Program-made: the position numbers and the translations under genes
Assembly: GCA_947561715.1 (NCBI GenBank)
Contig: OX387202.1
Span: 6,957,001-7,021,000 of the forward strand
From: Ascidia mentula
Lineage: Eukaryota > Chordata > Ascidiacea > Phlebobranchia > Ascidiidae
Length of the DNA stretch: 64,000 nucleotides
Direction of reading: 5' to 3'
Shown: positions 2,487 through 63,434 of the stretch, one piece after another
Layout of the letters: each line of letters starts with the position of its first letter
How positions within the stretch are numbered: position 1 is the stretch's first letter
The notes under the pieces: generated by a model
What the model was told of the DNA's origin: nothing
Databases searched by the model: none
The model's input: only the letters and a program-made list of their open reading frames with translations

Positions 2487-5400
2487 TCACACGGATTCGT
2501 CTTTGGTGGGGATCGAACCGCGCTTATCCGCCAACCGATGTCGCGATATCACAGATAACTTTGTCGCCCTTGCAGTGACGTCATTAATCCGGTTGTGGCG
2601 ATGAAGGAAAAATCTCTTGCAGCAGAAAATAGACGAAAACTCTATTTCCGAGTACAGAAAGGGATTTACTGCACTGTTAATGGGAAGCAGTATGACAGCA
2701 CTGAAAGCATAAGCTTGGCCTGGTATTTCCACTCCACCCATTTGAAGGAATGACATGAGACAAATAGGAACCCAGCAGGCGAAGTCTGTTAAAACTATGC
2801 GCGTAATTCTCCCGTGCATTTTTCGCAACTGTTTCGACCTCCGACGGGTGCTTGGTCTCATTGTTGTCATGTGAGAAATTGCCCAATAAGCACCGCACAC
2901 GTAACAGAACGCAAGAAAGTTAAAAATAACAATGGTAGCCGAAAATCCCCATCCTGCTTCGCCAGCTGCGACAAAAAAACGTGGCAAGCAAACGCTGTTG
3001 TCGCTAAAATAGCCGAAGAATCCTTTTACTTCAATGCCGTAATTTTGCTCCACAAAATCGCTCATTTCGAACCACGAGGTACCACTAGGTGGTTCTCCCT
3101 TGGGCAAAATAACCGCAAGACGACGTACTAGAGTCGTCATTTCTGGTTTATCCAAGGTCTCATAATGCGTAAAATTAGTTGGCATCCAAACTTCCGAAAC
3201 AAAATAATCAGCGAGGGCTGGTGCTCTTGGTAGCACTGCAAGCAAAGTCGACAAAAACCAAGCAAGCGTTACCAGAATGGCCGGAATCTTTACCGACATG
3301 CGTTTTGTTTTGATCGGGTTTGAGATGGAAAACAATCGGAGGGTAGTGAGAAGACATAGGACAAGTACCGACATCTCACTGGAAACGAGAGCCAGACTTC
3401 CCAAACTGGAGCAAGATGAGCTTGTCCTCCACTGCTTATCATAACGACAATAGTTCCCGGAAAATGATATTGACTTCGCGGATAGAAGGATGAGGTAAAT
3501 TCCCATCAGAGCGTCGGCAATCGACAGGTTAAATAAGAAAAAGTAATTGACTTTGGAAAGACCGTTCAGCTGTTTAACGTTGATGGCAGATCTAGCGACG
3601 GTGGCTGCATTAATTACATTGCCAACTAGAGCCAATAGACCGATTATCCAAGTGGTAATTCTAAATCCTAATGCTCCCAAGAGTTCTTTCCTCGATGATA
3701 AAACGTTATTGTCCATTTCGCGTGGACATTCGTCACTTCCGTCACTGCAATCCGGTTTCCCGTCAAGCTTTTTACTCAAAGGAACAGAATAAGGAACTTT
3801 GTTCTCGCAGTAAAACCTGTCAAGAAATGCATTTAAGACAATTTGAAAACTTATAGAATAATTTTTCGTGACATTAAGCACATTCATTCTACATTCAATG
3901 TTTAAATAAGAGTTAATTCTTCGAAATGCACAGGCAACGTTATTCTTATGTGAAACCCATATAAACCTTGAGCGACTGATATGCTGGTAAAAACAAACAC
4001 GCCCAGTCAACCCGCCGTCCTAGCCACAGAAAGAAGTGCAACGAAGGGAAACTATTGTTTCTTTAATATTGTTATTCGTTTCCGTAAACAAAAGAATAAG
4101 AACAAAACCATTGTTATCATTCACCTGTCAGTGCAATTGTCTTCATCGGTCATATCATCACATTGAGGTGTTCCATCACACCTCAAATTGATGTCAATGC
4201 TGATGTCATTTCCATTAGGACAATAGAACCTCGAAGGGCATCCATACTCTTCGACATCAATCCTAGGATGGCAAGCACTCCATTTTCCGTCACATACCGA
4301 CTTCATATCGAGAAATACCGCCCTGGACACAAATATAAACCAACAAACGTTGAATACATCTTTTGAAGCCCTTTGCTGACTCCGTTAAATGCAACTTACG
4401 TGTTGTCGCATAGGAATTCATAAGGTCCATCGACAGAGTTAAATCTCGCCAGGAGGTTACAGAAAGGTGGTGTGACGTCACAAGTTTCGTTGCATTCGTC
4501 ACTTAAGTCGAAGCACTCCGGGCGTCCATCGCACATTACAGCTTCTATTACACCTTTATTATTGTCGCCGGGACAAAGTTTCGTCTTCATATTTTCCCAC
4601 TCGCTGCGGATGCAAAACTTTTCATCATCGGCCGCTAGAGGGCAGTCGTCCACACCGTCACATATTCGGTTTGTGTCCAGGCAAGTTCCGTTGCCACAGT
4701 GATATTGACCGGGAAGACATGGACAGTTTGATTCCTTCTCAATGTTTCTGTGGACAAAATGCGCTGTTATTCGAAAAACAAAAGTTAAAGCCGCTGTTAT
4801 TGGAGATACAGCTCGATAAATTTTATCGTAAAATATGTTTTGTTTTTATATCTACCTGTTATTGTTGCCAGCCGTTATTGTTTAGGTTAGGCAACAAAGC
4901 TTTCAGAATACCGTAAATGTGATATAAGCGGCTGATTGGCCAAAGTACACTCAGCGGAAGTCTTTAGCAAGGGTGTGACAAGGCTAATTACACAGCTACT
5001 AACGGCTAATTGAAAGTGTCAAGTACCTTAGCCTTCCAAATTGGGCTTATTATGAGGAAGAAAGATTAGTTCCGCATGCTTTTATATCAAAGAGAACTAC
5101 GCCAATGGCCAACTGAGTTACTTTAATATTGCAGTTAATTGCGTTTGATTTGACTACGGTGTGTTATAAATGAGCTAATCGTAAAAATATCAAAACATTG
5201 CCCAAAGGTTTGAAAAGCTATTGGGTGATTTTTAAATTAAAACAAATGGAAACTGTGTAAAACGGTTTAGTGCACTGTTCACTTTGTGTGATTTGACTTT
5301 ATAGTCACAGTTTACTGACCCAAACTACTTAAAAAAAACTGGTTTAGTAAAAAATTATGTAAACAGCAAAAAATACATTATCTGCATGAAGTGCAGTGGA

Positions 5401-7751
5401 AAATAAAACACTGTTCCTCGGAGGTAACAACTCATACCTTTCAATGAAGACGCTATCGGCATGAAGACACAGCGAGTTACAAAGATCCTCAGTTCGCGGA
5501 TGATTTCGGCAAAAACATTCGTCAGAGAGATCAAAGCAATCGACCACCCCATCGCATCGTTGTCGGTCCGATATTACGAGGCGTTTGTCAAAACACTCAA
5601 AACACCTTCCAGGAACTGTGCAGTTGTCTGAGAGATCCTGGCATCTCGCCACATTTCCAAACACCTGTTCCTGTGGCAAAACGCACGTATCGAAATTGCG
5701 GCCCTGGACGCACTTAAAACCATGGCCCTGTCGAATTTCGTCGCTTAAGTCAGCACAGTCGTGTCGCATGTCACAAGCTCGGGACTCTTCGATACATTTT
5801 CCTGTTAAATAATGTTGGTTGGATATGAACTATTCTGCAACACTTTGATTCTCATGCAAGCAATATTATGTGCAAAGTTTTTGTTTCGATCAAGGATCAT
5901 TTTTTTAAATTTTAACAAAAGATCATCAAAAAATGCTATGTATATCTTGACATATGTTACTTTTGAGTCGAATAAAAATTAAAGTTATATTACAAGTTAA
6001 TGGCAAAGCGTGGTTTCATTTGCATACCTTCATCGCATTCAAAGTATCCTTTTTTGCATCCACCATTGGCATTACAAGCATAACTTGGCCAGCACGGTTT
6101 GGAACAATTTTTTTCGTCTGAGCCGTCCGCACAATTTACCACGGTGTCGCAAATTTGCTCCTGCACGAATAATTTATCTGAGTATTGTGAACGATGAACA
6201 AATGGTAATTAACCTAATGGTATTTACTTAAATAGTTACGAGGATAAAAAATAAACTTGTAAAACAATAAACAAACCCACTTGTAAAATGCATTCACCGT
6301 TGAGACAATGGAAATAACCAAATGCACAAGTTCCGTTTTCACACCTGAGAAAAAATGGTTTAGTAAGTCACGACGGCATTGTTTAGAAAACAGGACAAGA
6401 AAAAAGTGGTTTACATTTTTAAAACCAATGTATTCATGCTGTATACTAAAGCAATGTAGAAAATTAGACAGCCACACAAAAAAGAATTCCAAACCTTGGT
6501 GGAGGGAAACATGAACCTTCACAATGTTTTTTATCACTTCCATCGCGACAGCCAGTTCCACCACGACATACAACATGTTCTGGGACACATTCACCGTCGT
6601 CGCACATCCAGTAGCTGAAAAATATCGTTGCTTAAATTCGTGAGTTTTGATAAAAAGGTTTTTAGATTGTGAACACAAGAACACAATAATTCTTTATGCA
6701 TCAAATCACATTGTGTCGTCACAACTGACAACACAGTAGATTTTGAACTTGAGATTTTGAGTTTTTTTACCATTGTAGCCTTACCACAATTAATTACGAA
6801 CCAAAAGAAGTCTTACTTTTAGCCAAAAACACAAAAAAAGGCATTATTACACCGTATTGATGCTTGCTTTTAAGAGGACTTGATACTCAGGAATTTTTCC
6901 TTTACACAGGCATGAAGCTAAAAACGTACGGCAAAGCTAAATTTAAGACTTTTTTGAGCACAATAAAAATCTACAATAGGTAAAATTTTTAAAATCTACG
7001 AACTCCAATGCGCAAACGTTGCGGAAGCAAACTTCTGGTGGGTAACATGTCACGTTGCTTTGCGAAGACTGATAGTTCACTTTATCCCAGAACATCTTGC
7101 AGTCAGAAATCAACTCGACGCACTGTCCGTTGTCGCAGTGTTGATATTGAGGTAAGCACGATGCATTGTCACAACGATTGGCGGGCCAACAAGGATTTGC
7201 TTGGGCGTAGGTCATAATCTTCTTCTTGGCGATTTCCAACATCTGCAAGTACTGGCTCTCGTTCAAGCCGCTCACGTAGTTGCTGAAGTTGCTGATTGAG
7301 GCAGGGCGTAAATCTTCGGGGCATCTCTCGTAATTGTCAACGCAAGATTTGTCGCAGCAAGTACGAAAACCTTCTTTGCATCGTCCGCCTGTATCGCAGT
7401 TAGGATCTTGTTCATCGCAAATAAAAAGTAGGCAGCGGTTCAACGGGTGTTGAGTTACGGGTTGCTGGCCTAAAAGTTTGTGGTCAAAATAATTGCACAG
7501 AAATAAAAAATAAAAATGCGCAACAAATTGGTATCGTTAACCAAATACCTACCTACATAGATTTCAATACCAAATATTGTTGTACGGGCAGAGATATTAA
7601 CGCTTTCAAAAAAGTAAAAGCAAGTACTGTAGTAGTGAAAATGTCGTTATCATAGAGTATTTGTAAATCAAAACCCCTTACCTGTTGCTTTCCATACTTG
7701 AAGTAAAATGATCATGATAATTTTGAATGTAATTACTCTGTTTGCCTTCAT
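2487..7751 (-). CDS. LDL-receptor class A repeat-rich seven-transmembrane receptor (GRL101/relaxin-receptor-like 7TM, no leucine-rich repeats seen)
   Basis: The start ATG is at 7749-7751 and encodes a signal peptide (MKANRVITFKIIMIILLQVW). Exons are near 7682-7751, 7005-7469, 6492-6613, 6282-6343, 6028-6165, 5440-5805, 4400-4745, 4126-4322 and 2487-3816. The middle exons carry a run of LDLa modules (for example CGNGTCLDTNRICDGVDDCP and CDGTPQCDDMTDEDNC) and looser Cys-rich modules. The last exon finishes an LDLa module (DCSDGSDEC) and then gives seven hydrophobic helices. Helix 2 (LFNLSIADALMGIYLILL) and the helix 7 motif NPFLY are typical of LGR/relaxin-type rhodopsin-family receptors. The DRY/ERW site at the end of helix 3 reads TLR. 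Snail GRL101 and vertebrate RXFP1/2 put leucine-rich repeats between LDLa and helices; none is visible here. It is probably a plasma-membrane receptor with an unknown ligand. The last two exons join in frame (GACAG to GTTTT). Confidence 0.85.
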
Positions 7752-9102
7752 TGTGATTTCCAAGCAACGTACAGACCAACCTTTTGTCAAACGTTTACTG
7801 TAAATGTGGAAAGCTATTTACAGAGGTCTCTGCTAACAAATTGTTTCATTGAAAATGCAACCATAACAAGGCAACGCAAACAAACAAACAAACTTGCATA
7901 TTCCTATATTCTTCACATAAATATTCCAATTCAATGGAAACCAGCCAAATACGCCAAGTTTGTACTGAACCCAATCATGTTTAAATCTTGGCTGGGTAGA
8001 CGTTAGCAACATTGCCCGAGGCATGCAATGATAAGATGTGCGATAATTTGCTACAATTAAAGGCAATGATGAATGCTAGAATTTAGTTGTGCGGAAGTTT
8101 CCTTAATGAACAGGCTTTCACCTGCTCAAACTCTGAAATTGACGGAATTGGGAAGCAATAATTATCACCAATCAATTAAGACCGACGGTGATTACGTTTG
8201 ATCGAACACATTTCATCACTGTGTTTAGCAGACATGCCAAGCACGGAACTTTACCATGATACAAAACAATAATTCCATGTTTATCAAAAGCAATTATTGT
8301 ACGAAATCAAGTTGACATATAAACAAAGCAATTGGAAGTTAATTTTATTGGAAGTGGAAGTTTACACAATTCATATTATTGGCTTGTTTGTCAGTTTATT
8401 GTTCAAAACGGGTTAAAAATTTGTCTTTTTCAAAAATTCGAAGGATGTTTTGCGAAATCCACGTAAGCTTACGACGCCTAAATAGTATTTAAAACAACGC
8501 ACGAGCGAATGGCGACGCCCAATTTGGAATCTCTCGTTTTTTTGTTTTCCTTTGATTGTTGTGCTACCGCTTGTAACCAGGAGCCGAACTCCTTCAAACT
8601 GACTGCACTACGGTTAGCGAGATAACGTCAAATTGATAGAAATGCTGTAAAATAATACTCGGACAATCGGCAACATGTTAATATTAGTAACGTCATAACT
8701 GCGACCATGTAACGGGAGTCGGAGTCGATTATTTTTTCGCCACTCCATATAACCATGCTTATTACTGCGACTTGTTTCTGTTTGCGTTGTAGCTTTCGAG
8801 GCATTTTTCAGCTTCATATTTCCCGTTGTACCAAATGGTAAAAGCGTCACTGAAAAGCAGGCTTCTGACGTAAATCAAAGGCTTGTTGCTTCACTATATA
8901 CACCAAATAAAGTAATTTGCTGTCGCAGATAATGAAAAAACAATGGCTAACCGAGGGCTAGATCCCTTTACAATTATTGGTCAAGTCTTCTTCGGTAATT
9001 TTTAGTCTATATTTGTATAAAATCGCTGTGAAACTGTGAAAGTTGTTTTTGAGGCAATAAACAATTGTGTATTTCCTAATAGCAGTGAAGGACGCTCTGA
9101 AG

Positions 9103-9266
9103 CAATGTTTCCCAATCTGCGGGTGGAGACCCAGAAAAAAAAAATTAAAATTTTTTTCGGTGTTTTGTAGTTCTTGTATCGTTTGTTAAGTGAAAGTGAC
9201 TGCATGACATTTATGCTTGGGTCGCGGGAATTTTGTAAAATCTCTTAAAAAGGTTGGGAACAGTTG
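9103..9266. mobile_element. Small hAT-type non-autonomous DNA element
   Basis: The ends are inverted: left CAATGTTTCCCAAT, right TTGGGAACAGTTG (reverse complement CAACTGTTCCCAA). They are flanked by imperfect 8-bp direct repeats, CTCTGAAG and CTCCAAAG (6 of 8 equal). End sequences of the CAGNGTTTCCCAA type with 8-bp duplications are the hAT superfamily signature. There is no coding capacity; the inside is 164 bp. Confidence 0.6.
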
Positions 9267-9606
9267 CTCCAAAGCTCACAGACAGCAGTGATACGAATGA
9301 AGTAGAAACGTGAGATTGCATAGCTTAAATAAAACAACATGCTGCATATTTACAATAATTCACGTATAAACGCAAAGGTTGCACATAAAAGGATGAAATA
9401 CCGATGATTGTTGCTTGAAAAACTTGCGTCATTTGATCCACCTGCAATGTACGAAAAGTGTGAACTTTTGTAATGGACTAATGCATTCGATGACAGGCAA
9501 CAGGAAGTTTCAAACTCAAAATTATCTCTCATGTTCCATATATAACCATACTGGCCATAAATGATGTTAGCAACAAGTTGTTTTGAGAAAAATGGTTACT
9601 TATATA

Positions 9607-9795
9607 CAGTGGTGGAATTCAAGTATTTTAGCAACCGGTTGTCTCACTAGCGGCATCACAGTAACCGCGAGAATACAGTGTTTGAAGTGAAACATAGGCT
9701 TACACATATGGTTGTCAACAACTGGTTCACTTAGGTCAAAAACATTAGGAGCAGGTTCGCGCCAACCGGTGCCAACCGGCTGAATCCCACCACTG
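9607..9795. mobile_element. hAT-type MITE with 8-bp target duplication
   Basis: The left end is CAGTGGTGGAATTCAAG and the right end CTGAATCCCACCACTG, so the termini are inverted copies. The flanks CTTATATA (9599-9606) and CCTATATA (9796-9803) form an 8-bp target site duplication with one difference. At 189 bp it carries no transposase. It is a separate family from the 9.1 kb copy, since the internal sequence differs. Confidence 0.75.
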
Positions 9796-9870
9796 CCTAT
9801 ATACCCAATGGGGTTTGGACTCATCTTTCAGAAACAGTTTAGTTCGATTTACACACATTTGATTAATTCT

Positions 9871-12800
9871 TTACACATTCAAAATTAATTTACCCCCAAA
9901 ACCAGAAGGATTCGTCTTTTTTTCTCCACTTTTATTTTCTATTCCTTTCATTGTTTGTTGGCTGTTGACGAGGCCTGTAGATAAATGACCATCGGGCTCA
10001 GTAAAACCCTGTTCTGTAATTTCATGAATTGTTGTTGGTTGGTAAATTGCGGTAGTAGACTCTTTGGTTGTCAGTTGCACACTTGTAGATGAGGTGGATA
10101 CAAATTGCGAAGTGGAAGCTACCGAAGTTTCTGATGATGTGGTTACTTTGTTATTAGTTGTAACTTGTGTAATTTCAGTATGTGGTGTAGTTGCTGGTGA
10201 TGTTGTAGAAGACATTGTAGTTGTAGTCGCTGGTGATATAGTTGAAGACATTGTAGTTGTAGTCGCTGGTGACGTTGTTGAAGACATTGTAGTTGTAGTC
10301 GCTGGTGACGTTGTTGAAGACATTGTAGTTGTAGTCGCTGGTGACAGTGTTGAAGACATTGTAGTTGTAGTCGCTGGTAGACTGGTCGTTTCTGCTTCTA
10401 AAGTGACGTTTTTTGAAATGTCCTGATCGGGTGAACTCTTCAGTTCATTTTCCTGCATAACTTAAATGACAGATAAGTTAGAAAGTTTTTTGCATGATAT
10501 TCTCCAGCAAGCAAACCTGATTGAATCCAATCATAGTAAGCTGAAATGTTTGTGTAAACTCCCGGATATTTGCGATCAGCGCATCCTTCACCGAACGAAG
10601 TTAAACCGAACAAATAAAATGCTGCCTCATTGACCAAACAGACCAGTGGACCACCAGAATCACCCTGTATTAAACAACGTAATTGTAAACTTTTACTAGT
10701 CAGTTTTTCCAGCATTAGATGGATTTGTATAGATAGGAATTATTGACGCTGTTCCTCTTTGACGGGTGATAATTCAAAAATTGCAAGAATATTAAAGTGA
10801 GGAAAGTTGCTACTGACCACACAGCTGTCCACGCCACCCTTTTCAGTGTCTGCAGCGCAAATCGTGTTCAAGGGAATATTGCCGCCGTCTTTGGCCGCAT
10901 AAAGACTCTCACATAATGATCGTTTTACAATGGGGACTCTTACTTGTTGGAGAACTTCAGGGAAAACCTGCCTGTCTGGATCTAGAAGTACAAGGATGCA
11001 AGTATTGAACATTGTCTCTAGTAGTTTCGGAACTTGTTATGTCTGGCTGTTTAAAGTACATTAAATTGCACAAAAATATCACATTCGTACGTAGTGTCAT
11101 GACGACGCATCCAAAATTCGTTGACTTTTTTAGAGACGAATTTGTTCACATAGAATATATTAATTATTATTAGCACAACAGCTGTGAAGTGAAATTTAAA
11201 TTAGTGTGCGACACACCGAAGCATCCTGACGCATAATTCAGGAACCTTTCATATAATTACTTTTTTGTGTTCTCTAAAATTACGATACAGAAATGTCTGT
11301 TTTGTGGGAATTCTGTTGGAAAAGTATGGGACTTTCACGTATTGGCAATTACATATGCGATATCATAAAGCGGCAGTTAACTAACTTACATATGCTTCCC
11401 CAACCAGATGCAAGGCAAGTCCTCTTTGGTTTTAAGTAGAAAGTGGAGTTTAAGTTTGGGATGCAAATCGGCTTCACGAAGTCTGTAAAGTTGATTGTTT
11501 CAACTAATTGAAACATTGCAATATCTGCTCTGAGGGTCCTGAAAACAAAATGTCACGGATAAACATTTGAATAAGTTTGGTGACGATAACAGCAAGGTGC
11601 TGATTCTACTCAAAATGCATCTGAGTTATATCTGGCGATAGCAACGACAGTTCCACAATCACAAATACACCTAACTAACTTATGTATAGTAAGAACACTA
11701 AAGTAACCAATTTACTCATAATTTTCAGAATAAACAGACTGGCTCGAACACGTCATGTTTTATTTTGAAAACATGTCATGTTTTATTTATTTAAGACGTT
11801 TTGGCAAAAACTTACATCATCATCAGTTTAAATGGCGTGGTTGGTCTAGTTAACTATTATATAGAGTTGACCTGACTGACGTCAGAGATCGTATCGTAGA
11901 ATAATCATTCTGTTTATTTTCAGAATTATGTATAGTAGTTTTAAACGATATGATCATAATTGTCTGTCGCTTGACTAATTTAAAGAAATACGCAAATATC
12001 CTTTATGATATGTAAACAATAAAGGTTAATTCACTGGCTTCGCAGCCAAGGCATTGCAGCCAAGTTGGATCCTGCCTTACTATGCGAAAGCATGGCATTA
12101 CTTAAACAAGAAAGCACACTAAATATAGTGCGTGGATACTGTTTTTCATTTTGGCAACATTTAGGAATAATTTTTCTCTAAAAAAAATTTTCTTCAAGAG
12201 GCTGCGTCTTTCTGTAGAAGGTATATGTAAATGTTTTGTGGCTATAGTAAAATGAACAGTTACCATTTAAAATATTTCTCATGAACAAAGTATTTCTTCA
12301 CGTGGTGGACAACCTCCCCTTCGTTTCCTTCGTATCTATGACGACCTACGTACACATTGACGTCACCGGGTCTGCAAAGTCGTTAGGAGACAATGAAAAA
12401 ATCTTTGAATCGAAATTGAACCAAAGCCGTGAAATTAGGGTGAATGGTGAATGGGCGTCACCGCAGCGCCAGACTATTATTTCTATGCCTTCAATTCTCA
12501 AAATTACTTACTGCGTGTATAACGTGTAATAACTTATCAATACCTTGAATTGGTTTTGAGTAATTTTATCTAAGCTGAAACATAACTGTAAAAATATGGG
12601 AACGCAAAGCCTAAATCTGAAAGTGTCGCGTCTACTTAGTGTGGGCAGGATACAAGAATAAAAACATGACCCGTGTGTTTCAGAGGAAACAGCAACACAT
12701 CAAGGAAATAACAAGGTGAAAAATCAACAATAAATTGTATGATGAATGAAATCTTACCCCGCCAGTGTGTTTGTGCAGTGTGCAGCCGTTATTACCCATT

Positions 12801-26091: not shown

Positions 26092-28361
26092 TTTCCGCCA
26101 GTATTGGTCTTAGGTACTGGTAGCAGTCGTTATGACGTAATAATGCGTTTCGTCCGTCGTTAGCGCTAGCGTTTGTTTACCCTAGAAGTACGGCCGAAGA
26201 CGGCAGTATATCGTGTTCCTTTGTCATAGGGAATTCATTGCTGTCGGGATCTGGAAAGCATACCATTCCTCGACTGGAATTGAAGGCGGCTTTGGATGCC
26301 GTGAAGTTGTCCCGAACTTGGATTTGGAGGACTCCGTTTGCGTGGAATATCTCAATCGTACTGCAGTCATTGCACTCCGACAGCAAATGTTTTCGCGTAA
26401 CCGTTTGGCGCAAATTGAGCGGTACGCGTGTGTGCACAACAGGCGATACGTCCCTATACCCACTTAAATCCAGCAGATCAAGCTTTGCATGGAATGACCA
26501 CAGAAGCAAGTCAGAATATGGCACGACAGGCCTCCGGTTTTGAAAATGAGACCAGAGAAATGACCTAATTTGTTTTCCGAAGGAATCTGCCCTTGGAGTG
26601 ATTTACAAGAGTTTAGACCTTGGCACAGAAGTTGGAATCTTCCTTACCGCAACGGATAATGCACCAACTGACCACTTTTTGTCGTGTAAATGTCTTAAGG
26701 TCGCAACTGCTTGCATTTCGCGCGTTCGTAGGCAGCCTACCTTAAAAAAATCGCAAAAGGTAATGTGAAAATTTTCAAGTGCCTCAGTGACTGCAGAGTA
26801 GTTATAAGTTGCCTAAAACGCGCTTGTGGAATACGTACAACGCAGCGCATTTTCCCAATGGTAGAGGCGATATAAGGTCTCCTCCAAACGACAAGGCGTC
26901 GCCCATTTACAAGCTGGATCCAGTACTGGTGAATGGTGTGTTACGAGTGGAAGGAAGATTGGAAAACGCCCGGATGGGCTATGAAGCGAGACATCCTGCA
27001 ATTATTCCACAGCCATCCCATCTAACAGATCTGCTAATCGACGGATGTCACTGCAAGAAGGTATAGGCCATGTTGGCGTTAACCACACGCTAAATGTTCT
27101 TTCTTGAAAATTTTGGATCGTTAATACTCGGGTGGCAACACGTCAAGTCCTGAGCAAGTGTTTGGTTTTTCGACGGCGTTTAGCAAGGGGTGCAGAGCAG
27201 AGCATGGCTGATCTGCCGCTGCAGACTTCAAGTCGACGAGCCACCTTTTGCCAATACGGGAGTAGACTTTTTTGTTCCGTTTACAGTGAGAGCGACGTCA
27301 AGCGATACGGCTGCGTTTTTACGTGCATGAGTTCTCGCACGATCCACTTGGAGGTTGCGCTGGATCTTTCAACGGATGCGTTTATCAACGGTATGCGACG
27401 TCATATCGCTCGCCACAGTCCTGTTATTCATATGTATTTGGATAACGGGACGAATTTTGTAGGCGCTGAGCGTGTCCTTCGAGAATCGAATACTGGAACC
27501 AGCGACAAATCAGCTTTCTGTGACAAAAAGCGATCTCCTGGAACTTTAATCCACCTTCTGCAAGCCATTTCAGGGGAGCTTGGGAACGGATGATACGCTA
27601 CGTTCGAAGAATTTTGACTACACTACTCCCCAAGAAGCCTTTGGATGACGATATTCTCCATACGCGCTGCTACTAGAGGTTAAAAACATCGTGAATTCGA
27701 GGCCACTAACCGACGTTCCACTGGAAGCTGAACAGGACTTGCCCCTTACCCCAAATCATTTGCTGAAGATCAATCCGTTGAAATCCGTTGGACTGCCACC
27801 TACCGTGACACCGCCAACCGAATGTTACATTCGACACAGTTATAGGGCGGTACAATTTCTGGCCGACGAAATGTTTTGGCGTCGCTGGGTGCAAGAATAC
27901 CCACGTTCAATCATGTCGAGGCAAAAGTTGCATGACAAAAGGGAAAACCTTTCTATAGACGACATCGTTCTGGTGATGAATCACAGCACTCCCCGGGGCA
28001 ATGGCCTTGTAGACGACATCGTTCTGGTGACGAATCACAGCACTTCCCGGGGCAATGGCTTCTGGGTCCAGTTCGGAGCTATATAGTTTCATGACAAGCA
28101 CGGAATTGTCAGGAGTGTGGAGGTGACTACGCTGGCTGGGGTCGTACGACGACCGATAACCAAACTTTGCCTGATTGTTCGCGCAGACAAAAATAACAAA
28201 CGAGCGAACGGAGAAGCACACCACGGAAAGGGACCCTAAAGAACACATGCGTCGCTCGAATCTTAAGTGTGTGTAAAAAGCTGGATTTGCATTTTATGAT
28301 GCTCTTCCCATTTTATCAGGGGAGGATGTAGATTCTCGCCGTCATTATTTGTGTGGTTAGC

Positions 28362-31300
28362 CATCGGTGTCATAATTCGTCATATTGTACGCGTACCTTA
28401 GATAACGTGTGTGTGCCTTATTAATGAACGTTATTTAAAGCCTGGCCAACAGTGTCAAAATCCGAATAAGAGCGACATCATGTGAAATAATAAGGTACGC
28501 GTGCGTTAATAAGCAGCACGTTCGCTATTAGTGCACATGCACCTTAATAGGATACATTTTATGGCCAACCGTGTCATAAGTCAAACTCATGTACGCGTAC
28601 CTATTTAACGAACATGCAACTTAATAACGTACTCGTAACTTAGTAACGTGCGCGCATGTTAAATGGGCCAATAGTGTCATAATCTTAGGTCAAATTACTT
28701 GTACTGTCATCGTCTTTTTTTTAAACAACAAATAGTTAGCTTCAAGTCACAGCTTATATGCGTCGATATGCTCTGTTTTCTGCTTTCACTATTGCAAATA
28801 TCACTCATGTATCCATCTAGTGCACAGTGTTTCTCAAACTTTTTCCAATCACGTACCGCTCATTTTGTTTTTTATCACACAGCGTACCACCGTATTACTA
28901 CACCATAACTGGTATGGCATACCACCAATGAATAACAATTTAGCCAATATCACCAGTTGCTTTTATTTCTTTATTGTGCATTTGTGACGCAGTAGTATCA
29001 ACGTGAAATTGTTGCACTGTAATTCTGACATCGTGTATTCACTGTGCATCAATTTCACTATTTTATTGTCTGTGGGAAACTCCGTCACGCATGATTTCCA
29101 GGAGATCAAATGCGACTTTTTGCATACGAAGAGATAGGAAACACGCAAACAAATTCGAATTACTTAAAACGTGGGTGGAGTTTCAAAACGAATTTCAGTA
29201 TGTTAAAATAAGTATTATACTGATTCGAATGGGTAAAAAAATAGGAAATAAATCATTTCCTTTTTTGAAATAACACGTCGTTTTTCCGAAGAATTTTTTG
29301 AAGGCCTTGTGCAAATGGAATGAAAAAGCGCAAGTATGCCTCTTTGCATTTGTTTTTGTTGTTAAGTGTGTTTCAACTTGCCTCTGCTGACGTAATCTAA
29401 CTGTGACGTAATCATGACGCAGATTGTGAGTACTAATCTGGCTAAAACCGCTTTGTTTGTTGTAGAAAGACGTTTCAAGGCAAAATAACGTAGTCTGCCA
29501 TAAGTAGACTATATTTTGAAGTTATTCCGGGTCTTCAGACATTTATAAATGTGCTGCTAATCTATTTTTGCATGTATCTTACATCTTGATGTAATATTTT
29601 AATAGGGTTTGATCAATTTTATGTGTTGGATATGTATCAATGCACTCCATAAACTAAAAAGTGACCAAACAAAAGTAGTAGATTTTGGTATTATGTCACA
29701 AGTTCGCATGTTGCAGTTTAAAGTAAAACTCTACTTAATCTGTCTTCCTTGCCTAAATTTGTATGTCCAAATTATCACATACTATTTTGCCAGAACATGA
29801 CAGAAGTAATATATTTCAGACAATCTTCAGGATTCTCAGATGAAAGAAGCAAGATTTTTGTACCAATCTCCACAAATTTATATCATTTGAATTCTGTCTC
29901 TGATGAAAACATTTAATGTGTTCAAAAATTAAAATTATTGTAAGTTTTATGGTGTATGATAATAAATTCTAAATCAAAATTTATGACTAACTCCTGTCTA
30001 GCAAAAACCACCACACAAAAAGTAAACAGGATACTTTGTTTATGTATAATTGCAAAGGAAATACTCATGTCATGCTAGCATCAGAATATATTTCAACAAC
30101 ATGAAACCCAAAGCTTCTTTGAAAAATACATTTTTGAATCTAAGTTTATGTATTGCTTATTTTTTATCTAGGTTTGTTTCTCCACACTGTTAATTTTGTA
30201 AACAACAACTTAAAAGAATTCATAAATATGTTTATGTATGGCAAATACACACAAGATTACATCTACATAACAAACTGACTCACATAGAAAAAACTGTAGG
30301 TGATTATGAAACATATCATATTACATAAATTTGTATGTATATTCTTCCAAACAATATTTTGCCTGTGGTAGGCTACTTAACTTCACCAGATTCACAAACA
30401 TTATTTCAGAGCAAGCAGCCCCAAAGCATTTCGACCTTTGGTCATCTGTTGATGTACATTGTAGTTAGGAATTGAATCTTGCATGAAAATCACAATACCT
30501 AAAAAACGCATTTTTACACGATAGGATACCTTATAACCGTATTTATGCCTATAAAATGACGTCATGATTACGTCAACACAGGTATGTTTATACATACTTA
30601 CCGTAAACCAAATATTACATAAGGTGGTATACTTACACTTTAAAACTTCCAATTTACACATGGTGTCCAAAAACTGTTCGACAAAACATCACCGTACCTC
30701 GGAAAGAAGGGTAGGAAATACTTAATATTTTTAATTATTGGAATCAATATAGTACTAACTTTAACATACTACAAATTCAGCTCGAAACTCTACCCACGTT
30801 TTGAGTAATTCCAATTTATTTGCGAGTTTCCTATCTCTTCGTATGCAAAATGTCGCATTTGATCTCCTGGAAGTCATGCGTGACGGAGACAATGGTTGCA
30901 CTACCATGAGAGTATACTATGATTTCACGTTGATACTATTGCGTCACAAATACACAATAAAGAAAACCGACATCATGTATTTGCAGCGGTTTTGGCTTCT
31001 GCAAAGTGTGGCAAATTGTATAGAGTAGACTAAATCGCGTACCACTTGAAAAGCTCTCGCGTACCACTAGTGGTACGCGTACCACAGTTTGAGAACCACT
31101 GATCTAGTGGAAATCTGTAGTTCGCGCCGTTTACTTTGTTGTCTCGCAACCGTAAAGAGAACCTGCAACGTGAGGTTTTACTGATATCAACTCTGCTCTT
31201 GGCAAACTTAACACAATTAAATTGTGACGTAAAGATGAAAACTTTGTAAAATTCCAACTTAACATGTGCTAAATGAGATTAATATAGGCACTTACCCTTA

Positions 31301-32357
31301 TAGATTAAACCAGGGATGGACAACCTTTAGCACAGCCGGGCAAAAGCTGCATTTGATTTGGTGACAAAAATATGTTGCCTTTGGTGTGTAAATCTTTACG
31401 AACCGCTTGATAAAAGATATGTGAAATTTATCTGCTCAGCTCAATATTGACAAACTAGGTATTCAAGGCTAAATACGTCGCGATTTAATTGTGTTGAGTT
31501 TGCAAAAGGCATAGTTAAATGCAGTAAAACCTTACATTGCAAGTTGGGGTCGCCAGACATGAGGAATATTTTTTGTCAGTCGCGCCAAAAAATAATTGCA
31601 GACTGGTCTAAACTAGTGACATTTGCAAAACTAAAAGCAGAAAACAAGAGCATATAGAAGCAACGCTAATCCTTCCCCTTCTTAAGTCACATACAGTTGG
31701 AATGTATTCGAACAAAACAGTGCGCAGGTTTCATAGCCAAGGCAAATAACGCCAGGAACGCATTTAACTCTTACTGAGGCGCGCAGTAATTCCACAGGCG
31801 CAAGTCACATTGCAACACTTGTTGATTACACGGTGAATCTAAAACGCCCTTTGTTAGGTCAACTGTAGGACACAAAACGATATAATTACACAACAGAAAC
31901 GTTTAAGATAGGGCAATTTATCATGCCGCCTGGAGGTTAGTATTAGTTACATCATGTTATGCGTTTGGCCGCATATGCGGATGAAACTTTCGTGCCATAG
32001 AAAAGTGCGGATAGTCTTTGAAAAGGTTGAATATCTTAGGCTAAGATTATGACACTATCGTCCAACTTAACATGCGCGCACGTTAATAAGTTTCATGTTC
32101 GTTAAATAGGTACGCGTACATGAGTTTGACTTATGACACGGTTGGCCATGAAATGTATCCTATTAAGGTGCATGTGCACTAATAGCGAACGTGCTGCTTA
32201 TTAACGCGCGCGTACCTACATTATTCCACATGATGTCACTCTTATTTGGATTTTGACACTGTTGGGCAGGCTTTAAATAACGAACACGGTCGTTAATAAG
32301 GCACACGCACGTTATCTAAAGTACACGTACAATATGACGAATTATGACACTGATGGC
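28362..32357. mobile_element. DNA element with about 330-bp inverted repeats and subterminal motifs
   Basis: The arms 28362-28692 and 32036-32357 are inverted copies beginning GCCATCNGTGTCATAATTCG. Inside each arm the motif GGCCAAC-N-GTGTCATAA recurs about four times, mixed with many TACGCGTAC and CGTTA words, like transposase-binding subterminal repeats. Without the nested hAT element it would be about 1.7 kb. No transposase frame is visible. It sits inside what appears to be the 3' LTR of the BEL/Pao fossil. No clear target duplication was found; the family is unknown. Confidence 0.7.
28825..31101. mobile_element. hAT-type non-autonomous element with long imperfect inverted arms
   Basis: The left end is CAGTGTTTCTCAAACT and the right end AGTTTGAGAACCACTG. 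Perfect 8-bp direct repeats ATCTAGTG lie at 28815-28822 and 31102-31109 (two extra bases CA sit between the left repeat and the element). The inverted similarity goes deep: 28963-29190 pairs with 30776-30965 (shared words GGAGATCAAATGCGAC, CATACGAAGAGATAGGAAAC). The 1.6 kb between is AT-rich without a transposase frame. The hAT superfamily assignment rests on end sequence and 8-bp duplication. Confidence 0.8.
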
Positions 32358-32772
32358 CATCCATATATTTGTCACGTTTATAATAGCAGTACTTACAACG
32401 TAATAATGTGTGTACGTCACTGCCTGTGTTATTCACTTACATCAGTGGCATTGTCTTGATCTGTTGGCGTGATTTCTTTCGTGAAGTTTAGTTGTTGCAC
32501 ATGGCTGTGCTAAATGTGCTCTTTTTATCCTGCTGTTTTCATATATTTTATGTGCTAGGAGCCAGTTAACTATCGAAAATTATTGCTCATTGAATTGTAT
32601 GCTTATACAAAGACATTTATGGCTTGCTTGAATTTTTGTTGCAAAAAAAACGCGTATTTCGACGCTGAATAACCTGTTTACGAGCACTGGCAGTTGGCAA
32701 GCGCTGCCCACGTGTGCTGTGGGCGTAACAACTATATTACAAACCATTCATGAATAACGCAGTATTTTTTTG

Positions 32773-33240: not shown

Positions 33241-33824
33241 ATCTAGTCCGTTGCTTCTTCACTTTCTTTAGTTCACGACATTTTGGTTTGAAGTCATTAT
33301 CACTATGATTGTTTTATCATAGCTGCTGTGAGAAATGTATTGCCCAGCCCTATGATTTAACAAATAATCTGAAGGTGAATTCACATATTGAGCTGTGGAC
33401 ATTACAACCACGGAGCCTATTGTTTAGAGTGGATATGGTGGTCAAGTATTACTGGTGCTATGGTACACCATTTCATAATGATGATTTCGTACATTTTAAC
33501 CGCAACACACCATTACAAAGAAACGCATTTCTTTCAGAGTAAAATCGTTTGTGAGCGGTTTTAGTTTAAATGTTGTTCACAAAGTCGAGGTGTTGCAGTG
33601 TACCAAATGATTCCGGAAAATGACCTTCCGTATTAGTTACCAAGAAACAACAGGGTGGTAGTGACAGACGCGTAACATCGGTTTTGTAAAGGGGAGTTTC
33701 CCACTGAACAAAGTATCGATGAGTCGTCAGATAAACACTAAAGTGTTTGTCTTTCTGTTGTGTGGCCTTTTAAACAGGTTTACACCTCACTGTCTTTTGT
33801 CGCAATATTTTTTTTCTTGTAGAA

Positions 33825-34795
33825 ATGTGTGACAAATTGCGAGACCCATGTTTTGCTGTGAGGTACATTTTTAATATCGAGCTGCAGGTTGGACTTGAGG
33901 TTGGAACGTCAAGGTGGAATCCAAGGGAGAAGACAAACAATAACAAACGTAAGTGATATCAATATCAGAAGCGACGAATCGTTTCTTTCCTGAAGGGAAT
34001 TGTTCAGAACTACAAAATAAAGAGCAACAAGTGTGTGAAACAAAAACCTTGCAAAGTAGGACAGAAGAAAATTATTCGTAAGTACGCATATAAGTCTTGC
34101 CCAAGCCACTTTTACTAACAGTTCCTGTTAAACTTAGTCAAATCAGCGTGATGAAGGAAGATGTTATTCGTTTGGGATTTCGGCCAAACTTGCCATATAT
34201 CGTTTGGAGACTTGAGGGGAACGAAATTACTTGCAGACATTTCTCTATGGAGACTGGTTGGTTCAGTCGCAAGGCGGTTAAGTGTAGATTTGGCGTTAAG
34301 ATCCTAATCAAACGATATCATTGCAAATTTATCATGATAAAAATTAGTAGTTCGGAAGCATTTGCAGTTGTGTTTGAAGATGGTACAATGGTTTGTAGCA
34401 GCGGTCATGGTTATAGAGATGCATGCGCATCTATCTCTCAATATTTAAACGTACTCTTAAGTCTAGGTTGTCAAGTAAATTTACGTTCTTTCAATGCATT
34501 TTGTCGTGTGAGGTACCCGTTTAACATATGCTTACACAGTCTTGTTACCACGGGTTTGGGTTGGATGTCACACTTTTGTGATTCCAACCAACAAATAAAA
34601 AAAACAACCAATCCTAACTATGTCATGTTCTATTTTGTTGACATCGCAGTTCATGTAAGAATATTTAGTGACGGACACATGTTGGTTTTGGCTGATAATA
34701 ATGATGACATGGCCGTTGCATTGACCCGAGTTTATCCCCAGTTGCGGCGCCACCGTGTGTTCGGATCGGGTCTTGCTGTTACAGTAAAACTGTAG
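33825..34795 (+). CDS. Highly divergent TATA-binding-protein-fold (TBP-like) protein
   Basis: Two exons, 33825-33948 and 34122-34795, join in phase 1 across a GTAAGT donor and a CTAACAG acceptor, giving 265 residues. Residues about 105-161 (KRYHCKFIMIKI, AFAVVFEDGTMVC, then a helix ending LLSLGCQ) and 165-255 (RVRYPFNICL, NPNYVMFYF, VHVRIFSDGHMLVL, VALTRVYPQLRR) follow the two halves of the TBP saddle. TBP equivalents are ALIFSSGKMVC, LGF, VKFPIRL, LLIFVSGKVVL and IYPILKGFR. The Phe that ends strand 3 in each half is kept (VVF, RIF), while the partner Phe appears as Tyr. The first 100 residues (VRYIFNIELQVGLEV, FRPNLPYIVWRL) may hold another half-like unit. TBP-family members nucleate transcription complexes on promoters; the role here is inferred only. 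A strong acceptor ends 2 bases before the ATG (trans-splicing?). AATAAA is at 34971. Confidence 0.65.
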
Positions 34796-36040: not shown

Positions 36041-39000
36041 TCATAAGTGAAGTGAGTCGGCTGATTGCATGCTTGAGCGCACACGTTCGGCCTCCACTTC
36101 ATCCCGGAGCACTTCCACCCTTTGTTGTAAGGATTTTACCTAAATCAAATGACAATGAATTAAAGTCCAATAAAGACAGACCGTGTAAGTTGTAGACAAC
36201 ACGTTTAAACATAGTAGCTGTGAACTTATTAGTTAGGTACGAAGAGCCGAAAAATTGCTCAAGAGTGGACCACCATACAACCACCCAATGCTTCGCCTCA
36301 AACTTTCAAGTCGTCGCATTGTAAGTTAACGTTAATCTTACCTGTGATTTGAGGCAAGCAATTGTTTCTTCCAGGTCATCTTTCATCGATTTGGGGAGAA
36401 GGCACTTCATCCTTTCCTCGTATTGCATCTTCACGCGGGTGATCTGGAAACAAACATTCAAAATTGTCATTTTTGCATCGAAATCGAAAAATTGTGGTCC
36501 ACCAGTCTGTAACATTTAATTCACTTCTTTGGTCTCCACATTAACATCTTTATCGGGGAAAGCAGTAGGTGAATAAATTGAACCATGAGTGACAATAAAT
36601 AAGCTACCTCACAATGTAGATAGTAGAGATACGTGTATTAATAAGCAGTATATATATATAATCAACCTGGTTTAAATGAACGTGACAGTTTTTATGATAT
36701 AAAGAAGTTGATTACCTGATCCTTAAGTTCGTATTCCATCTTCTGCATCTCTCGTTGAATCACGTGACTCTTTTCTCGCTCATTTTCGAGTTCGGTTTGA
36801 GTGTTCTTCGAATAAATCATCATATATTAATACAAAACATATGCTGAAAACTACATTAACCTGAAGTGTAGGAATATACGGAGACAGCATATATCATTTA
36901 AATCTTTCACAATAATAACCATTTGAGTGCAAATAACTCTTTGTTGTATTGTAAAGGTTCTACAATAAAATGGCCCTTTAGCATGTTATGTTAGCAAATA
37001 TTAGTTACCAAACAGTTCGATGCTAGAACAGACATCGGATTTGACTTAATTGAGTCGTTTTAACTAGTACAAAAAAGTCGTGTTAAATTAAACTGACTAA
37101 TCATGTCACATGATGTGAATATTATAGTTGAATACAAGTTCTTAATATTCCAATAATAGAAACCAAACAATAAACCATTTAGAAGTGTGGAAGTAGATAT
37201 AATGTAAACCCTTGCGGACAATTTTACGCACCATGATGGCTGCTCCCATCTGAGACCTCATCTTGTTTTGTTCCTCATCAACTTTGGCCGAATTCTTTAC
37301 GATCAATTCCTCCATCTCCCTCTGCATCCCAACCATCTGATCCCGAAGATCATTTTCCTTCCTCTGTGCATCCGATATCCGATCCTGAGCTCGATCAAGT
37401 TGCTGACGATAATCCTCCTCGATCTGATCCAAACGAGTTTTGGCCTAAATTATATTGAAACATGTTTGAGTTGTTTTTTTATCAATAAATTTGTTTTTCC
37501 ATATACATGTGTACAAAAATTATGTACGACAGTCGCTTCTGAAACTAGATTATATCGCTATTTATAAGAGCAGAATCTGGTGGTAAGTGCGAAATATGTA
37601 AAAATACCCAAAGGAGCAACAAAATATTAGTGTAATTATGTCGGAAAACAAAACAAAATATGGAAAGTATGACAAACTTTTAAAATGTAAGAACGTTTCT
37701 CTGAAATCCGCACTATTTTTGTATCATTTGAACCCGAACCTTCTGCGTTTGTCTTTCGAGTTCAGCAGCGTGTTGTTGGTGCATCTCCATTCGCTGTCGG
37801 TCAATCTCGGCTTCTAGTCTCGAAACAGCCATATCGTTATCACGTGCAGCTTTCTGGCGTTCTTCTTCCCGTAAAAGACCAAGTTCAACCAGCTGTTGGC
37901 GCCGCAGAGCGTTCGCCGAAACAATTTCCTCCCTCAATTCACGAATTTGTTGCTCAAGCCCAGATATGACCTGCAAGAGTGCAATGGGTAAAATTGATTG
38001 CATTTTTTCTTAATTTTTTAAACGCCCAATTTGTAGAAACGATTCATCTGAAACTTTAAGACACAATTTTTCTGCGTCATAACACACGAAGCGAAGTTTG
38101 TTGAATTAAAATAACACAACCTGGGGTTATATGACAAACATTAATGGCCACAAACGTGAACAAAAAACAACCGAAGCAGTAAGATGGCACATTTAAACAC
38201 TTCATGAAAGACAACGAAACATTAATATCTTTCAAAATATCAACTCTATTGATGGTGGCTTCGGGAAAATGACGTACCAACATATGGCGGCATTGATATA
38301 ATTGGACAAGGTGGAACAATTTTACAATATCATACCTCCTGATGTTGAACTCTTCGTTCTTCCGCGATTTTTTCTTGTTCTTCCAGAGCTTCCCTTAACC
38401 TCATTTCAGATGATGAAAGTTGTTTTTCGTATTCACGGACGATGTGGTCGCGTTCGGTTGTCGATCGTTGGGAAAGAATTCCCTTCTCGTGTTCATACAT
38501 AACTCTTGCCTCTGTGAGCTAAACCAAAACCACGCAAAACTTTTTTAATTTCTGGAACACAGACTGCGGTGAATTATGCAGTGTGTTGCATGTGAACCGT
38601 ATGGCGATACGTTCTATTCATATATCGACTTGTGTTGCTTAGGCCGGGTCCACGCTCACGCTTTGCGCCGGCGGATTCTTTGTTTGTTTCATTATACGCG
38701 TGCGGGCGTACGCTCGTGACATTGAAACAACCAAAGAATCCGCCGGCGCAAAGCGTGAGTGTGGACCGGCCTTGGATCGGAAAAGCGAAAAACTGATATT
38801 TACCATTGTTTAAACTTTAAATCTCCAAACATTTATTGCAAAGACATTAAAAGTTACCCATTTTAATAGCTGTACTGTTTACACTTGCTTGCGAATTCGA
38901 AGATAAAATCTAGTAAAATACCGAACCTCGTCATTGTGTTTTTCCTTCATTTCTTCAATTTGTTTGCGGAATTCATCTTGAAGTTTGTCTCGGGTCAGTT

Positions 39001-60755: not shown

Positions 60756-61360
60756 ACAACTTTTTTAGATAGCTATATGTTTTGTGTTAAGTCCATAAGT
60801 TATGCAGCAGGTTTATTTTTACTAACAAAAGAGGCACAGAAAGTTATACTGTAGACTATGAAAAGCAAGAGTAAAACTGTTTTGATATTAATATTTCATG
60901 CAATTCGTACTATTTTCTTACAGTTGTTTAGTTGTTGCAAAAATGGCAAGTTATCTCTTTACGGGTGAAGACCTAACAGCCGACTATAATAGATATAGAC
61001 CTCAGTACGAGGAAGAAGTTGTTAATTATGTGATACAACAAGTTGAAAAGCAATCTGGACATAAACCAAAATTTCAAGTTATGGTTGATGTTGGTTGTGG
61101 AAACGGGCAAGCAACCAGAGGTTTTGCTCCTTATTTTGAAAAAGTTATTGCTAGTGACGTCAGCGAGCAGCAAATTAAACATGCAAGAAAACAAAACAAG
61201 TATGAACATGTTACATACGAGGTCGGAAAAGCTGAAGAAATTCATGTAGAAGACAATAGCGTTGATTTGCTACTGTCTGCCACAGCTGCACAATGGTTTG
61301 ATTTAAAGGCGTTTTTGGCCGAAGCGTCTCGAGTTTTGAAGCAAAGTGGTATACTCGTAC
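60756..61360 (+). repeat. Left copy of a tandem duplication (second copy from 63435 to window end)
   Basis: From TTTTTTAGATAGCTATATG onward the DNA matches 63435-64000 almost base for base, covering about 190 bp upstream of the methyltransferase ATG and the whole visible part of the second gene. The coordinates mark only the part that can be compared. The few differences mean a recent duplication. Confidence 0.9.
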
Positions 61361-61836: not shown

Positions 61837-63434
61837 CAATATTGTACATTACACTAGTGGTACGCATACCACCGGTTGGGAAACATTGACGTATATGTTA
61901 TCATCAATTGATTTACCAGGTTTGTTTATTGTAAGAATACACACACAAAGCGTATCTGAAACACGTGATACGGGTGACTAGACAACGTGTGTCATTGTCG
62001 TGTGGCGCAAGCGCGGATCTGAAAGAACAATAGGTCGTATTAACAAGGTCACTTGTTCCTACTATTGTTTCACGATTACTAATTTTACGGGATTGATTTT
62101 TTTTCGTAAAATTAGGTCAGGCAATTAACTTGTTGAATTGATTGCATCGTGAACGTTTTAAACGATTTATGCAAGACTGTCGCCTTTTATCTCTCTGCGA
62201 AAAATTCGTTTCATAGTCTTCATGCGCATATTATTGTTTGCACTTCATACAAGCCCACATACTTTTGTTTTAAATACAAGTATCTTTTCCCCTCCAGGGT
62301 CCATTCTTTATTGTGTTGGAAACAAATGTGGCGTATGTTAAAGTGCATATGACACGTAAAAATAAAACATGTTAATAATCAAACTAAGAGATGTTCATAA
62401 CTTTAGAACATTTTTGGCGAAAAAAGTAGCTTGATACGACGACTGGTTTCTGAGATACAGCTGATCATAGTCGCACGTTTGCCGCTGCGAACGAAATCGT
62501 GCGAAAGCGAGATATTGTTGCGTGGCGTCATAGAAGGCGCTTCAGTCGTGCGCGAGTGCTGGCAGCAAGCCTTATGCATAGGAATGGAAAACATTGTAAA
62601 ACTGGTTTAAGCATAATATTGCATTAAACAGGGGACAAAAAGTGAACAAGTGCAATAAACGGATTTTGATGTTAATTTAAGCTGAAGACAAATGGCCGCT
62701 GTTCGACCTATTATGTCTTATTTAGTTGTGTAATAATAAAACAGTTACTGGGACAGGGTGTTCTTGTTGTTACAGCATTTATGATCGCTAACGTGATACA
62801 TGAACTTTTGAAAACACGACAGAGAAAAACCGTTAGTTTAGCATTGTAGTTTTGTCCACTCACAGTTATGTCGTTTCTGCTATACCCTCTGGTCTTCCGC
62901 TATTTAGGGACAAATAAGCATTTGATTCGTGACGTCACAATGACAATTTTTTGTGTGATGCAAAACCCTGTCCTGACCTTTACGGTAACGTAATCTGTGG
63001 ATTCTCCTATGTTTGAAACTATTCGATATCTGCAAACAAAGGCGCCTTCTCCTATCTGAACAATGCATTTTTTCGACGCAAGCGCCTTATGTGATGTCCT
63101 TTTCTCCTCAGCGCAAAAGGTTAACGATTTTTGGTCGCCGTTACTTTTCGTGCAGTTTTCTACATTTTTTAGTTGACGTAGAACCGTAAAACTTTAGATA
63201 TATGTTTGTTGTAGATGTACCTTTAGTTTCACGCAAAGTTGTCTTGGCCGTGTCATATGCACTTTAAAGAAGAAAAAATAGGCCTGGGTTTCAGGAACCA
63301 CTAATTGAGTGACTCATCTCATAACTTTGAACATATGTTGATTATAATACAAACGGTTTTAACGACATCCCCTTGCACCAAAAAAATGTTGCGAAGAAAG
63401 TTAGGAATTTGTTTATAGGTTATAGTTTGTTATT
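61837..63434. other. Spacer between the methyltransferase copies
   Basis: 1.6 kb without recognised exons. It starts with a copy of a hAT-type element end (61850-61935). Near 62680 a relic of hairpin family A (GACAAATGGCCGCTGTTCGACC) is visible. Confidence 0.4.
61850..61935 (+). repeat. Copy of the hAT-type element right end plus flank
   Basis: GTGGTACGCATACCACCGG, TTGGGAAACATTGACGTA and the flank words GTTA(T/C)CATCAATT match 60316-60400 in the same orientation. These copies therefore bracket methyltransferase copy 1 as direct repeats about 1.5 kb apart. Confidence 0.65.

What the first reader, a model, noticed from the sequence alone, without database searches (positions are those of the whole stretch)
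33825..34795. A very divergent TBP-fold protein, possibly a lineage-specific transcription factor
Seen: a spliced 265-residue frame with two consecutive regions matching the TBP half-saddle in order (strand ending VVF/RIF, xDGxM turn, helix ending in LG or YP, then RVRYPFNICL at the junction). Both turn Phe residues are kept, while the partner residues are Tyr. Known: TBP, TRF2/TLF and TRF3 are the only animal members. Inference: sequence identity is much lower than between those, so this would be a fast-evolving extra paralogue, perhaps with altered or no DNA bending. The N-terminal 100 residues may carry a further half-unit. It sits beside a transposon nest.
Basis: partly seen in the sequence, partly recalled or inferred. 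Interest (0 to 1): 0.78.

Follow-up and report, generated by a model that had tools for sequence, protein, structure and literature searches.

The report
Highly divergent sea-squirt TATA-binding-protein relative
A sea squirt carries a third, very changed relative of the universal gene-starting protein TBP that appears to have lost the contacts TBP uses to call in its usual partners, so it probably does a specialised, still unknown job.

Summary
A two-exon frame (33825-33948, 34122-34795; 265 codons) passes Pfam's TBP cut-off with two stretches (34.8 bits, E 1.5e-8), and none of 5000 shuffles reaches its score against a TBP profile. Chromosome lengths point to Ascidia mentula, chromosome 6. The genome also has ordinary TBP and TLF genes; no second copy of the window gene was found. 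It is 20-24% identical to its own TBP. Of 62 family members scored, the host's own TBP was closest and 12 viral ones furthest. Its TBP region is one uninterrupted exon where, by my splice models, TBP has four introns and TLF three: probably a retroposed TBP copy.

The YEPEL segment (TFIIB contact) and the basic helix residues are gone. No extra N-terminal half-unit is detectable. Insect TRF1 was overlooked, and a Ciona 'TBP-like' EST stands in a published tree.

Unshown: transcription, orthologues, DNA binding. Most likely it is a specialised TBP-related factor with altered partners.

The parts
33808..33822 (+). T-rich stretch and AG two bases before the ATG: 3' splice acceptor, possibly for the spliced leader
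   Evidence: Sequence. The 16-nt ascidian spliced leader (recalled from Ciona) followed by GT occurs 1830 times in this genome (931 forward + 899 reverse), the pattern read backwards 0. Use of this particular acceptor is inferred.
33825..33948 (+). exon 1 (ATG start; 41 codons plus one base), no detectable TBP half-unit
   Evidence: hhalign of the N-terminal 97 residues 0.3%
33949..34121 (+). 173-bp intron, GTAAGT...TTTTACTAACAG
   Evidence: no transcript evidence
34122..34795 (+). exon 2, holding the whole TBP-like region, to a TAG stop
34325..34474 (+). N-lobe strands S2-S5 and long helix (KFIMIKISSSEAFAVVFEDGTMVCSSG...LLSLGCQ)
   Evidence: gapless block with own TBP, 11 of 50 identical, hydrophobic pattern 41 of 50; AF2 ten-residue blocks 68-82 pLDDT with archaeal alignment
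34487..34546 (+). junction strand/helix region SFNAFCRVRYPFNICLHSLV
   Evidence: aligned with TBP [22 protein letters not shown] with a 3-residue gap in 9 of 9 MAFFT runs on the TBP/TLF set; the archaeal alignments place it differently; low confidence in the AF2 model
34622..34756 (+). C-lobe strands S2'-S5' and long helix (VMFYFVDIAVHVRIFSDGHMLVLADNN...VYPQLRRHR)
   Evidence: best Pfam stretch includes it; 10 of 45 identical to own TBP; AF2 blocks 76-83 pLDDT
34971..34976 (+). AATAAA polyadenylation signal, 176 bp after the stop
   Evidence: sequence

Best explanation
An extra, fast-diverged TBP-family gene of the ascidian Ascidia mentula, most likely born as a reverse-transcribed copy of TBP. 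SHOWN BY COMPUTATION: a 265-codon spliceable frame, both TBP half-repeats in order, closest to the host's own TBP among the 62 scored, no intron in the core, no second copy found. SHOWN BY ALIGNMENT: one Phe per lobe kept, the TFIIB-contacting Glu pair (YEPEL) lost, the basic residues of the N-lobe helix lost. INFERRED: the protein folds as two TBP lobes, still offers a DNA-facing sheet but kinks DNA less than TBP, and is no longer held by TFIIB and TFIIA. It therefore works as a specialised TBP-related factor with new partners on a restricted promoter set, most plausibly in germ line or early embryo, as other animal TBP paralogues do. I put family membership at about 0.88 and this working mode at about 0.4.
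For: Pfam TBP 34.8 bits with two stretches. TBP-only profile 18.2 bits against at most 11.3 in 5000 shuffles. hhalign E 6.8e-6 over both lobes. Hydrophobic pattern shared with TBP at 41 of 50 and 34 of 45 positions, reached by 0 and 5 of 5000 shuffles, in blocks chosen from the alignment. AF2 with 26 archaeal TBPs gives ten-residue blocks of pLDDT 68-83 over S2-H2 of both lobes, and the first 37 Foldseek rows are TBP chains. One-to-one scores: own TBP 17.2, human TBP 15.9, own TLF 13.1, 47 archaeal 4.8-13.3, 12 viral at most 3.2 bits. Introns by my splice models: own TBP four in the core, TLF three, here none. Open frame of 224 codons has chance 3.4e-6 per place at the window's stop frequency. 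Canonical splice sites and AATAAA.
Against: No transcript or orthologue was seen. Codon usage does not single out this frame: in-frame -0.015 per codon, one reverse frame -0.004, own TBP +0.033, TLF +0.047, best of 166 noncoding open stretches +0.119. AF2 without an alignment is uninformative (pLDDT 40, no TBP among the 50 rows shown). AF2 with archaeal rows leans on those rows, and the two lobes are not placed together as in TBP (TM 0.28-0.36 by query length, rmsd 12.6-16.7 A in the first 37 rows). The tree could not place the protein (end branch 10 changes per column). Identity to TLF is nearly as high as to TBP, and higher in 1 of 9 alignments. DNA-contact residues (recalled) are eroded: the Lys of each turn becomes Thr and His, and a Thr becomes Leu.
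Confidence: 0.6

Rival explanations
1. The protein no longer acts on DNA: the TBP fold is kept as a scaffold or as a competitor that binds TBP or its regulators.
For: At least one of the four intercalating Phe (284) has no counterpart, another (193) is uncertain; Lys of both turns and a DNA-contacting Thr (recalled) are changed. The core has less net positive charge (15 K+R against 10 D+E in 160 residues) than TBP (29/15) or TLF (34/17).
Against: pI stays basic (8.9 core, 9.4 whole), and one Phe per lobe is kept in 12 of 12 alignments. TBP regulators bind surfaces that are also eroded here (recalled).
Confidence: 0.28
2. A second TLF/TBPL1-derived gene rather than a TBP-derived one.
For: C-lobe block 12 of 45 identical to TLF against 10 of 45 to TBP, with the same one-residue gap as TLF; whole identity 17-21% to TLF against 20-24% to TBP, TLF ahead in 1 of 9 runs.
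Against: Scores favour TBP: 17.2 against 13.1 bits one to one, 18.2 against 12.9 by profile. The Trp typical of TBPL1's N-lobe (PMC7221094, passages and section 14) is Phe here and Trp in own TLF.
Confidence: 0.2
3. A dying or untranscribed relic: a TBP retrocopy that is by chance still open.
For: No transcript evidence, no orthologue tested, codon usage not diagnostic.
Against: At 20-24% identity to TBP a neutral copy should have gained many stops and frameshifts (inference). The frame is intact over 265 codons with splice sites and poly(A) signal, and the hydrophobic core pattern is kept.
Confidence: 0.12
4. A gene captured from a large DNA virus, several of which carry TBPs.
For: Uninterrupted exon; some viral TBPs also lose the TFIIB Glu pair (PMC7221094, passages).
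Against: All 12 viral TBPs fetched score 3.2 bits or less against it, below own TBP and all 47 archaeal TBPs tried. Two other viral scans gave no relative. Pfam-named neighbours are animal genes.
Confidence: 0.04
5. Not a TBP at all: chance likeness or another beta-alpha fold such as a polo box.
For: Polo-box chains appear in Foldseek at E 0.026 and above, below the TBPs.
Against: No polo-box family in Pfam at E 10 or less. The long helix follows directly on the hairpin, as in TBP; polo boxes have more strands there (recalled). Shuffle control.
Confidence: 0.04

Closest known systems
TBP of the same genome (C67 about 14351673-14352700, minus strand) and human TBP
   Same: Two tandem lobes, order of strands and helices, one Phe per lobe, MVC motif; own TBP is the best of 62 family members scored
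   Different: 20-24% identity, whereas own and human TBP are identical at 163 of 176; YEPEL and basic helix residues lost; extra loops of 13-27 residues (by alignment) before S2 and about 9 before S2'; no introns in the core
TLF / TBPL1 / TRF2 (own copy at C69 4843185-4846285)
   Same: Divergent animal paralogue; C-lobe gap shared
   Different: TLF keeps YEPEL, the basic helix and has Trp at the N-lobe Phe; 36% identical to TBP; three core introns by my model
ciTBP-like, EST BW175023 of Ciona intestinalis
   Same: A third ascidian TBP-like sequence, listed in a tree legend (PMC3142196, part 1 of section 4 and passages read)
   Different: Sequence not available here; orthology with the window gene untested; no discussion of it in the parts read
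TRF1 of insects and TBPL2/TRF3 of vertebrates
   Same: Lineage-restricted TBP paralogues with germ-line expression
TBPs of large DNA viruses and archaea
   Same: Two-lobe fold
   Different: 12 viral and 47 archaeal TBPs all score below host TBP

Membership tests
TBP superfamily (PF00352) | Passes Pfam gathering score with two tandem half-repeats | tested here: met
   34.8 bits against 22.9, two stretches
TBP superfamily (PF00352) | Two-lobe saddle structure | tested here: inconclusive
   Each lobe's S2-H2 modelled as in TBP only with archaeal TBP rows; overall placing not TBP-like
TBP proper | Four intercalating Phe (human 193, 210, 284, 301) | tested here: not met
   210 and 301 are Phe in 12 of 12 alignments; 284 is Lys in 10 and a gap in 2; 193 is His in 6, Phe in 4, gap in 2. 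Positions from PMC3142196
TBP proper | Glu pair of the C-lobe (EPE) that contacts TFIIB | tested here: not met
   Asn and Gln in all 10 alignments that hold animal TBP; own TLF keeps both Glu. Role of the pair from PMC7221094, passages; mapping to EPE is mine
TBP proper | Basic residues of the N-lobe long helix (TFIIA/NC2/Mot1 side; recalled) | tested here: not met
   RKYARVVQK of TBP against SQYLNVLLS
TBP proper | TATA binding and bending | not testable with these tools
   needs purified protein
TLF/TBPL1 | Trp at the N-lobe Phe210 position | tested here: not met
   Phe in the window protein, Trp in own TLF; feature from PMC7221094
TLF/TBPL1 | Groups with TLF in a tree | tested here: inconclusive
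   branch of 10 changes per column, unplaced
TBPL2/TRF3 | Core about 95% identical to TBP | tested here: not met
   20-24%
Viral TBP | Closer to viral than to host TBPs | tested here: not met
   12 of 12 viral TBPs fetched score below host TBP; other viral TBPs not tried
Functional gene | Spliced transcript | not testable with these tools
   RNA-seq ERR10378036 exists for the specimen (PMC11109543, passages)

The most novel reading that the evidence does not exclude
An animal TBP-fold protein that has cut loose from TFIIB and TFIIA and nucleates, with its own partners, a separate promoter system in a chosen cell type. That would be a candidate for the kind of male-specific TBP variant proposed (not found) for the TCTAGA core promoter of Oikopleura (PMC6389100, passages).
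Probability: 0.13. Interest if true: 0.82.

Novelty: new variant of a known kind. Interest (0 to 1): 0.52.

Why it matters
TBP is among the most constrained proteins known, and the paralogues TLF and TBP2 still bind TFIIA and TFIIB (PMC3142196, passages). A transcribed chordate TBP copy that has lost both contacts would show how far the fold can be repurposed. It would also give a concrete candidate for a dedicated tunicate promoter system, testable by RNA-seq and one knock-down. Until expression and orthologues are shown, it remains a strong family assignment with an open function.

Tried and rejected
Viral scans: with the first TBP/TLF/window alignment, 46 stretches matched a pattern and none was a relative; with the window protein none matched; with a TBP-archaeal alignment 12 viral TBPs, all poor matches to the window protein. 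PHROGs: one meaningless hit; NCBIfam: three weak hits, two of them TBP. Rfam and tRNA scans of the window: empty. Codon-usage test: no power. Single-sequence AF2 and its fold search: useless. Tree: unplaced. A viral-TBP profile scored 8.1 bits, reached by 1 of 5000 shuffles. Extra TFIIB-family genes as dedicated partners: four exon hits in two regions, nothing suggestive. A weak Pfam TBP hit at C52:13288652 (18.6 bits) overlaps a frame of about 430 codons in another phase and is taken as chance. The family search did not list the window gene itself, so it is less sensitive than a direct scan and further divergent TBP relatives may be missed. The bacterial promoter scan does not apply to an animal and was ignored. 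The PTEN_C2 search meant for species naming was dropped once chromosome lengths gave the species.

Species caveat: three of four contig lengths agree to 0.01 Mb with the published table (22.34 against 22.35 for the fourth), but the held genome is 195.8 Mb in 79 contigs against 197.0 Mb in 95 scaffolds published.

Paper searches bearing on 'not described': (open-access PMC only, listings capped); among what I opened only PMC3142196 lists a third Ciona TBP-like sequence. PMC1994123 is not held.

Full report
WHAT IS THERE. The window is G000:C70:6957001-7021000. The 16-nt ascidian spliced leader (recalled) followed by GT occurs 1830 times in the genome, the pattern read backwards 0 times, which fits a trans-splicing tunicate.

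GENE MODEL. ATG 33825 lies two bases after a T-rich tract ending in AG. Exon 1 ends at 33948|GTAAGT; exon 2 starts after TTTTACTAACAG at 34122 and ends at TAG 34795; AATAAA is at 34971. The model has 265 codons. At the window's stop frequency a 224-codon open stretch has chance 3.4e-6 per place. Codon usage does not help: in-frame score -0.015, one reverse frame -0.004, own TBP +0.033, own TLF +0.047, best of 166 noncoding open stretches +0.119.

FAMILY. Pfam gives TBP (PF00352) at 1.5e-8, 34.8 bits, cut-off 22.9, two stretches. In the PDB, the 18 best of 20 listed sequences are TBPs, though none is significant alone (best E 0.027). A profile from the own and human TBP scores 18.2 bits; the best of 5000 shuffles scores 11.3. 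hhalign against 15 TBP/TLF/archaeal rows: 84.6%, E 6.8e-6, 128 columns through both lobes. In gapless blocks of the two lobes, 11 of 50 and 10 of 45 residues equal own TBP, and the hydrophobic pattern agrees at 41 of 50 (0 of 5000 shuffles as good) and 34 of 45 (5 of 5000); the blocks were picked from the alignment, so these counts lean towards agreement.

WHERE IT CAME FROM. The genome has ordinary TBP on C67 and TLF on C69. No second copy of the window gene was found by protein or DNA, but the family search missed even the window gene, so distant relatives may be overlooked. Scored one by one, own TBP gives 17.2 bits, human TBP 15.9, own TLF 13.1, 47 archaeal TBPs 4.8-13.3, 12 viral TBPs at most 3.2. 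By my splice models own TBP has four introns and TLF three in the core; the window gene's core is one exon. A reverse-transcribed TBP copy is the simplest reading, but intron loss by other means is not excluded, and the tree cannot place so long a branch. Identity is 20-24% to own TBP and 17-21% to own TLF over nine alignments, TLF ahead in one; the C-lobe block alone is slightly nearer TLF (12 against 10 of 45).

WHAT HAS CHANGED. Phe210 and Phe301 of human TBP are Phe in 12 of 12 alignments. Phe284 is Lys in 10 and a gap in 2; Phe193 is His in 6, Phe in 4 and a gap in 2; Tyr stands at neither place in any. The YEPEL segment is gone; its Glu pair, which contacts TFIIB (PMC7221094, passages; mapping mine), is Asn and Gln in 10 of 10 alignments. 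The basic residues of the N-lobe helix (RKYARVVQK) are SQYLNVLLS. TLF keeps both features. Extra residues stand before S2 (13-27, by alignment) and before S2' (about 9). The N-terminal 97 residues show no half-unit.

HOW IT MOST LIKELY WORKS. Inference: the sheet side is partly kept and the general-factor side is not, so the protein probably binds DNA without strong kinking and answers to other partners, in a restricted tissue. Vertebrate TBP paralogues act mainly in gametogenesis and early embryos (PMC3142196, abstract and passages), and a male-specific TBP variant has been proposed in Oikopleura (PMC6389100, passages). A non-DNA-binding scaffold or competitor is the chief rival.

WHAT WAS KNOWN. 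PMC3142196 (part 1 of section 4, and passages) lists a third Ciona sequence, 'ciTBP-like: BW175023', in a tree legend; the parts read do not discuss it. If it is the orthologue, the gene is transcribed and older than the Ciona-Ascidia split. That could not be tested here.

VERDICT. A very divergent extra TBP-family gene, intact in sequence; a new variant of a known kind; function and expression open.

Noticed in passing
window 26136-26540 (+), perhaps to about 28083: Remains of a Pao-type retroelement (Pfam Peptidase_A17 at 1.7e-4, 22.0 bits, just under its cut-off of 22.3); the next frame, 27108-27590, has no Pfam hit. Observed only.
   Followed up: partly
window 28354-32363: Nested inverted repeats (arms 28354-28431/32286-32363 and 28493-28642/32068-32217, 90-94% complementary) bound a 4-kb element upstream of the gene.
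   Followed up: no
window 60761-61239 and 63434-63911 (+): Recent tandem duplication (97-98% identical) of the start of a methyltransferase gene (Methyltransf_11).
   Followed up: no
G000:C1 about 15.24-15.32 Mb: Spliced-leader sequences in a long tandem array with a 719-720-bp period among the places listed; 1830 exact matches genome-wide.
   Followed up: partly
window 36306-36515 (-): Coiled-coil-like frame that resembles the CEP112 C-terminus (recalled; no Pfam hit), convergent with the TBP-like gene.
   Followed up: no
window 2490-10461 (-): Rhodopsin-type GPCR frame, LDL-receptor class A repeats, and a 36-bp tandem repeat coding a Thr/Ser-rich stretch.
   Followed up: no
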